A stretch of 13,160 bases of DNA from Treponema sp. (GTDB lineage Bacteria; Spirochaetota; Spirochaetia; Treponematales; Breznakiellaceae), in contig JAIWNU010000150.1 of the NCBI GenBank assembly GCA_020216655.1, positions 1 to 13,160 of the forward strand. The letters run 5' to 3'. Positions 5,082-6,167 of this stretch are shown in pieces; within the stretch, counting starts at the first letter, position 1; each line of letters opens with the position of its first letter. The position numbers were made by a program, and so were the translations under genes. The notes under the pieces are model-generated. The model made no database searches. It saw only the letters and a list, made by a program, of their open reading frames with translations, and had not been told where the DNA came from.

Positions 5082-6167
<1,086 letters not shown>

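What the first reader, a model, noticed from the sequence alone, without database searches (positions are those of the whole stretch)
5370..5372. Single in-frame TGA splits an otherwise intact GH11 xylanase-CBM gene
The frame is open from 5082 to 6167 except for TGA at codon 97. Sequence on both sides joins without gap into a canonical GH11 (GGKGWSTG / [10 protein letters not shown]), and both catalytic Glu lie after the stop. No other decay is visible, so this is a very recent nonsense mutation, a sequencing or assembly error, or functional readthrough. One base (TCA to TGA) would restore a Ser. If real and terminated, the cell makes a 96-aa lipoprotein stub.
Basis: seen in the sequence. Interest (0 to 1): 0.75.

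Follow-up and report, generated by a model that had tools for sequence, protein, structure and literature searches.

The report
Xylanase gene broken by stop codon
A xylan-digesting enzyme gene in a spirochaete genome is cut short by one stop codon, most likely an ordinary real gene loss rather than a sequencing slip or a special decoding trick.

Summary
The in-frame TGA at 5370-5372 is in the sequence. It is codon 97 of a GH11 xylanase-CBM6 lipoprotein gene (5082-6167) that is otherwise open. No relative examined has a stop at this residue. The same 100-residue stub is listed from a contig of another length (8708 against 13160), which argues against an assembly slip. Since the split from its sister, the post-stop protein shows 16 window-side against 3 sister-side replacements (p 0.004); the neighbouring GH30 shows 25 against 27. 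That suggests lost constraint, but codon models are not significant (p 0.20, 0.08) and one intact relative has a nearly equal branch. No tRNA-Sec reached threshold, a GH8 ORF in the window ends in TGA, and Trp, the usual read-through residue, is absent from this column. Best reading: a young nonsense pseudogene beside other xylanases; error second; functional readthrough unlikely. In passing: a 5'/3' UTR inverted repeat flanks the gene.

The parts
5054..5065 (+). Left arm AAGCATATCGGC of a 12-bp inverted repeat, just upstream of the ribosome-binding site
   Evidence: counterparts in L069 and L070 with compensatory differences
5072..5076 (+). GGAGG, likely ribosome-binding site of the GH11 gene
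   Evidence: read; aligned GGAGG in L002 and L041
5082..5369 (+). GH11 gene, part before the stop: lipoprotein signal (Cys19, by eye) and GH11 profile positions 2-45; predicted 96-aa stub
   Evidence: same stub, 100 aa from the in-frame ATG 5070, in the database as P0121
5370..5372 (+). In-frame TGA, codon 97; Gly in the close relatives
5373..6164 (+). Part after the stop: rest of GH11 (both catalytic Glu, residues 127 and 216), linker and CBM6; open frame, excess replacements
6165..6167 (+). TAA at the end of the GH11 frame
6191..6202 (+). Right arm GCCGATATGCTT of the inverted repeat
6207..6233 (+). Hairpin GGGGCAGC...GCTGCCCC followed by a T run, likely terminator (by eye)
   Evidence: read; no terminator scan was run
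386..2017 (+). Intact GH10-CBM4_9 xylanase, possible functional backup
3489..5006 (+). Intact GH30 enzyme directly upstream; control gene of the relative-rate test
8813..10006 (+). GH8 ORF that ends in TGA

Best explanation
A real nonsense mutation has inactivated the GH11 xylanase gene in this spirochaete population. Translation stops at codon 97 and gives at most a 96-aa lipoprotein stub without either catalytic glutamate. The part after the stop has begun to lose constraint but has not yet gained a second frame break. Shown: the stop, intact relatives with Gly there, no stop at this residue in the relatives examined, and the asymmetry of replacements. Inferred: no useful full-length product, loss tolerated because GH10, GH30 and GH8 enzymes remain, and the order (stop first, then relaxed constraint).
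For: P0001-P0009, L002, L041 and L003 are intact with Gly at the site. Stub P0121, 100 aa and ending at the same residue, is listed from one contig of 8708 bases, while the window's GH30 (P0194) is listed from 13160. Relative-rate test against the sister with five near outgroups: GH11 post-stop 16:3 (p 0.0044); GH30 25:27 (p 0.89); residues 43-96 before the stop 0:0; Fisher 16:3 against 25:27 p 0.007. WAG branches post-stop: window 0.080, sister 0.012; GH30 0.131 against 0.118. Nonsynonymous to synonymous changes after the stop by parsimony: window 32:55, L041 12:51, L002 8:43 (Fisher against both p 0.003). 0 of 121 matches of two large families in this genome hold a stop. Possible backups: GH10 in the window and matches at C214 and C205 of the same genome.
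Against: No second frame break. With P0004 as the only outgroup the asymmetry is 13:5 (p 0.096), and the intact P0004 has a branch (0.069) almost as long as the window's; in the catalytic domain alone it is 6:1 (p 0.125). Residues 1-42 lean the other way when distant outgroups are included (sister 7, window 0). Codon models are not significant (omega window 0.064 against 0.035, p 0.20; 0.042 against 0.017, p 0.077) and reject omega 1 on the whole window branch (p 0.015 and 1.6e-5), which also spans time before the stop; synonymous sites are saturated. Both catalytic Glu are kept. Only one control gene could be tested against the sister. No reads were available.
Confidence: 0.76

Rival explanations
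1. The TGA is a consensus, assembly or strain-mixture error; the organism has an intact GH11 xylanase.
For: Single defect in a gene otherwise intact; the window is a whole contig of a draft genome (C170 of 251, 89.6% complete); no reads available; the codon models do not show relaxed constraint.
Against: The same stub is listed from a contig of another length, though whether from the same reads is unknown; 0 of 121 matches of two large families in this genome hold a stop; an error would not explain 16:3 replacements after the stop.
Confidence: 0.19
2. Functional readthrough: ribosomes decode this UGA part of the time and make some full-length secreted xylanase besides the stub.
For: Frame open to the old stop, catalytic Glu kept, UTR elements kept. 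TGA is the leakiest stop in E. coli: 14 of 40 TGA reporters over threshold, 0.7-6% at one position depending on the stop (PMC11126739, passages read).
Against: No stop at this residue in the relatives examined; Trp and Cys, the residues reported at TGA (PMC11126739), are absent from the column in the 120 best of 4947 homologues (G 90, S 15, A 12, T 1, P 1, gap 1); constraint after the stop seems lowered; no unusual local fold (z -1.28).
Confidence: 0.04
3. Recoding: UGA read as selenocysteine, or TGA reassigned in this genome.
For: The stop is TGA.
Against: 7 tRNA-Sec matches, none over the gathering score (150 of 217 candidates scored); the best two are tRNA-Leu (taa) and tRNA-Ser (tga) by ARAGORN, the other five were not checked. 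No Cys in the column. The GH8 ORF ends in TGA. The genome is 89.6% complete, so absence is not proof; selA and selB were not searched.
Confidence: 0.01

Closest known systems
GH11 endo-1,4-beta-xylanase with CBM6 of spirochaetes (P0004, named Gracilinema caldarium in UniRef; L002, Treponema sp. MAG)
   Same: Domain order, 83-92% identity after the stop for P0001-P0004, upstream block and ribosome-binding site conserved in L002 and L041
   Different: The window copy alone has the in-frame TGA
Young bacterial nonsense pseudogenes (general knowledge)
   Same: One stop, intact relatives, signs of lowered constraint downstream
   Different: No second disruption yet; evidence of relaxed constraint not conclusive
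UGA stop-codon readthrough (E. coli reporters, PMC11126739, passages read)
   Same: UGA inside an open frame
   Different: Not conserved, and the residue column disfavours Trp

Membership tests
GH11 xylanase (PF00457) | Profile match over the whole domain | tested here: met
   Pieces match 2-45 and 48-178; genome match 2-178, 272.3 bits, cut-off 27
GH11 xylanase (PF00457) | Two catalytic Glu in the translated product | tested here: not met
   Both lie after the stop (residues 127 and 216; 216 is E in 120 of 120; 127 nearly invariant), so the predicted stub lacks them; their catalytic role is recalled
Nonsense pseudogene | In-frame stop absent from intact orthologues | tested here: met
Nonsense pseudogene | Relaxed constraint after the stop | tested here: inconclusive
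   16:3 relative rate p 0.0044; codon models p 0.20 and 0.077
Programmed readthrough | Stop conserved across orthologues with constrained downstream frame | tested here: not met
   No relative examined has a stop there
Selenoprotein | tRNA-Sec in the genome | tested here: inconclusive
   No match over the gathering score, genome 89.6% complete
Selenoprotein | Cys or Sec in the homologous column | tested here: not met
   0 of the 120 best homologues has Cys (a look-up by identity reads Sec as Cys)
Sequencing or assembly error | Reads show a sense codon | not testable with these tools
   No reads held; indirect evidence against

The most novel reading that the evidence does not exclude
The UGA is leaky by design in this lineage: the cell makes mostly a lipoprotein stub and a little full-length surface xylanase, with the conserved flanking 5'/3' UTR repeat acting on the same message, as a way of keeping a costly secreted enzyme at trickle level.
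Probability: 0.03. Interest if true: 0.6.

Novelty: new member of a known kind. Interest (0 to 1): 0.17.

Why it matters
Mostly a caution for enzyme mining and annotation: this genome should not be credited with a working GH11 xylanase without a check. It also gives a small case of gene loss beside other xylanases, with an intact sister to compare. If readthrough were shown it would be a rare bacterial case in a secreted enzyme.

Tried and rejected
Selenocysteine and code change: disfavoured. Restart after the stop: the first in-frame start codon is ATG 5688 (residue 203), without a convincing ribosome-binding site, and its product would lack a signal and the first Glu, so not a rescue. Synteny as a control: of the window's other genes, L069 gave only a distant GH10 match (27%) and L070 only a distant match of the first gene (36%), so the GH30 of the sister was used (P0195 and P0001 both list 5 contigs, longest 107096). 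Codon models: synonymous sites saturated, some branch lengths at their bounds. Window DNA in viral contigs: none. GCATATCGG as a genome-wide element: rejected, 26 sites against 19 for the reversed control; 20 of the 26 lie inside ORFs of 120 aa or more and 3 of the other 6 are in this window. Other inside stops: G176 TAG aligns with residue 191 of L002, G307 TAA with 232, and in G550 none falls within the aligned part; the window's stop aligns with 95. Solved structures: GH11 relatives exist, best 7dfm (E 4e-102, with P0001 as query); not used further. Literature: searches (10 of 52 listed; 5 of 5) showed, by title and start of abstract, no paper on a stop-interrupted GH11 of this group; one search found none; some searches were general. 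Papers other than PMC11126739 were seen as listings only.

Full report
What is there. The window is the whole of contig C170 of a draft genome (2.66 Mb, 251 contigs, 89.6% complete, 0.7% contaminated). The window holds a xylan-degradation locus: GH10-CBM, a CBM protein, a polysaccharide deacetylase, GH30, the GH11-CBM6 gene and a GH8 by Pfam. It also holds a 540-aa and a 252-aa protein without Pfam match, and a long reverse ORF at 9994-13158 that looks like a glycosidase by eye only, since it was not scanned. The GH11 frame opens at GTG 5082 behind GGAGG and is open to TAA 6165-6167 except for TGA 5370-5372, codon 97. The two pieces fit the GH11 profile without a gap, 2-45 and 48-178.

Relatives. 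The closest protein, P0001 (361 aa, 92% identical after the stop), is intact; so are P0002-P0009, L002/L040, L041 and L003. All of these have Gly at the stop position. In the family, 24 of 195 genomes have GH11 and 2 of 46 matches contain a stop: this TGA and a TAG in G176. In the class sample, 11 of 394 genomes match and 2 of 21 listed matches contain a TAA (G550, G307). None of these three other stops lies at the window's position.

Is it an error? Reads are not available. Three things argue against error. The same stub, ending at the same residue, is in the database as P0121 from one contig of 8708 bases, while the window's GH30 is listed from 13160; whether that contig comes from the same reads I cannot tell. 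Two large families in this genome show no inside stop in 48 and 73 matches. And the part after the stop behaves differently from the control gene, which an error could not cause.

Constraint. The sister genome carries both GH11 (P0001) and GH30 (P0195); both list 5 contigs, longest 107096, so probably the same contig. With five near outgroups, GH11 after the stop has 16 window-side and 3 sister-side replacements (3 ambiguous, 264 sites, p 0.0044): 6:1 in the catalytic domain (p 0.125) and 10:2 in linker and CBM (p 0.039). L041 alone gives 17:3. GH30 has 25 and 27 (40 ambiguous, 499 sites, p 0.89). GH11 residues 43-96 have none on either side, and residues 1-42 have 1 and 1 (6 ambiguous). With all nine outgroups and strict polarity the post-stop count is 11:1 (10 ambiguous), and residues 1-42 give 0 window-side against 7 sister-side (2 both, 1 ambiguous). 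The contrast 16:3 against 25:27 has Fisher p 0.007.

Against this. P0004 as sole outgroup gives 13:5 (p 0.096; Fisher against GH30 0.10), and the intact P0004 branch is 0.069 against the window's 0.080. The absence of changes before the stop is only borderline (0 of 54 against 16 of 264, Fisher p 0.08). Several window residues are mild or common ones: Y at 162 is the majority residue, while V at 214, I at 100 and F at 345 are in none of the homologues. Parsimony counts on DNA give N:S 32:55 for the window (branch including the stem) against 12:51 and 8:43, but codon models with saturated synonymous sites give p 0.20 and 0.077 and reject omega 1 for the whole branch. I take relaxed constraint as likely, not proven. 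With about 4% of random changes making stops, some 13 extra replacements would be expected to bring fewer than one further stop, so the lack of a second stop does not conflict (inference).

Recoding and readthrough. tRNA-Sec: 7 matches, none over threshold (150 of 217 candidates scored); the two best are Leu and Ser tRNAs. The GH8 ORF ends in TGA. The RNA around the stop folds little better than shuffles (z -1.28, 20 of 200 as good). In E. coli reporters TGA is the leakiest stop and is read mostly as Trp, less as Cys (PMC11126739, passages); neither residue occurs in this column. Low-level leak is possible anywhere; a selected readthrough is not supported.

Likely consequence. The cell makes at most a 96-aa lipoprotein stub lacking both catalytic Glu. 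GH10 (also matched at C214 and C205), GH30 and GH8 remain, so the loss is probably tolerated (inference).

In passing. The GH11 gene is flanked by an inverted repeat, AAGCATATCGGC 5054-5065 just before the ribosome-binding site and GCCGATATGCTT 6191-6202 just before the terminator-like hairpin. L069 has GCATATCGGT/ACCGATATGC and L070 (the same contig as L002) GCATATCAGT/GCTGATATGC, so both arms change together, although the neighbourhoods differ. The longest Watson-Crick helix is 12, 11 and 9 bp (12 with G-U in the last); L003 has 4. Unrelated pairs of UTRs reach 9 in 2.4% and 10 in 0.8% of cases, a control that contains some duplicated loci. Only 3 sequences support this, and the reverse ORF 6252-7874 shares the right arm and has a matching 9-mer at 7886, so a protein-binding site in DNA is as likely. 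A pairing of 5' and 3' UTR is known for icaR mRNA in S. aureus (PMC3868564, title and start of abstract).

Noticed in passing
5054-5065 and 6191-6202; L069 9004-9012/10154-10162; L070 14502-14510/13364-13372: 9-12 bp inverted repeat flanks the GH11 gene, before the ribosome-binding site and before the terminator-like hairpin, with compensatory differences in three genomes of different gene neighbourhood; possible 5'/3' UTR helix or paired operator.
   Followed up: partly
7886-7894: Third exact GCATATCGG in the window, followed by GAAAAA and a nearby TATAGGGAAAAG; ATAGG/ATCGG-AAAAA-like stretches also stand upstream of GH11 in the window, L069 and L070, perhaps a shared regulator site.
   Followed up: partly
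P0121 (database), 100 aa: Same stub listed from a contig of 8708 bases, not the window's 13160; its hidden origin would help decide the error question.
   Followed up: no
L130 (G176:C2:148300-149500): Another GH11 match of the family with an inside stop, TAG, aligned with residue 191 of L002.
   Followed up: partly
6252-7874, - strand: 540-aa protein without a Pfam match, convergent to GH11, looks by eye like an outer-membrane barrel.
   Followed up: no
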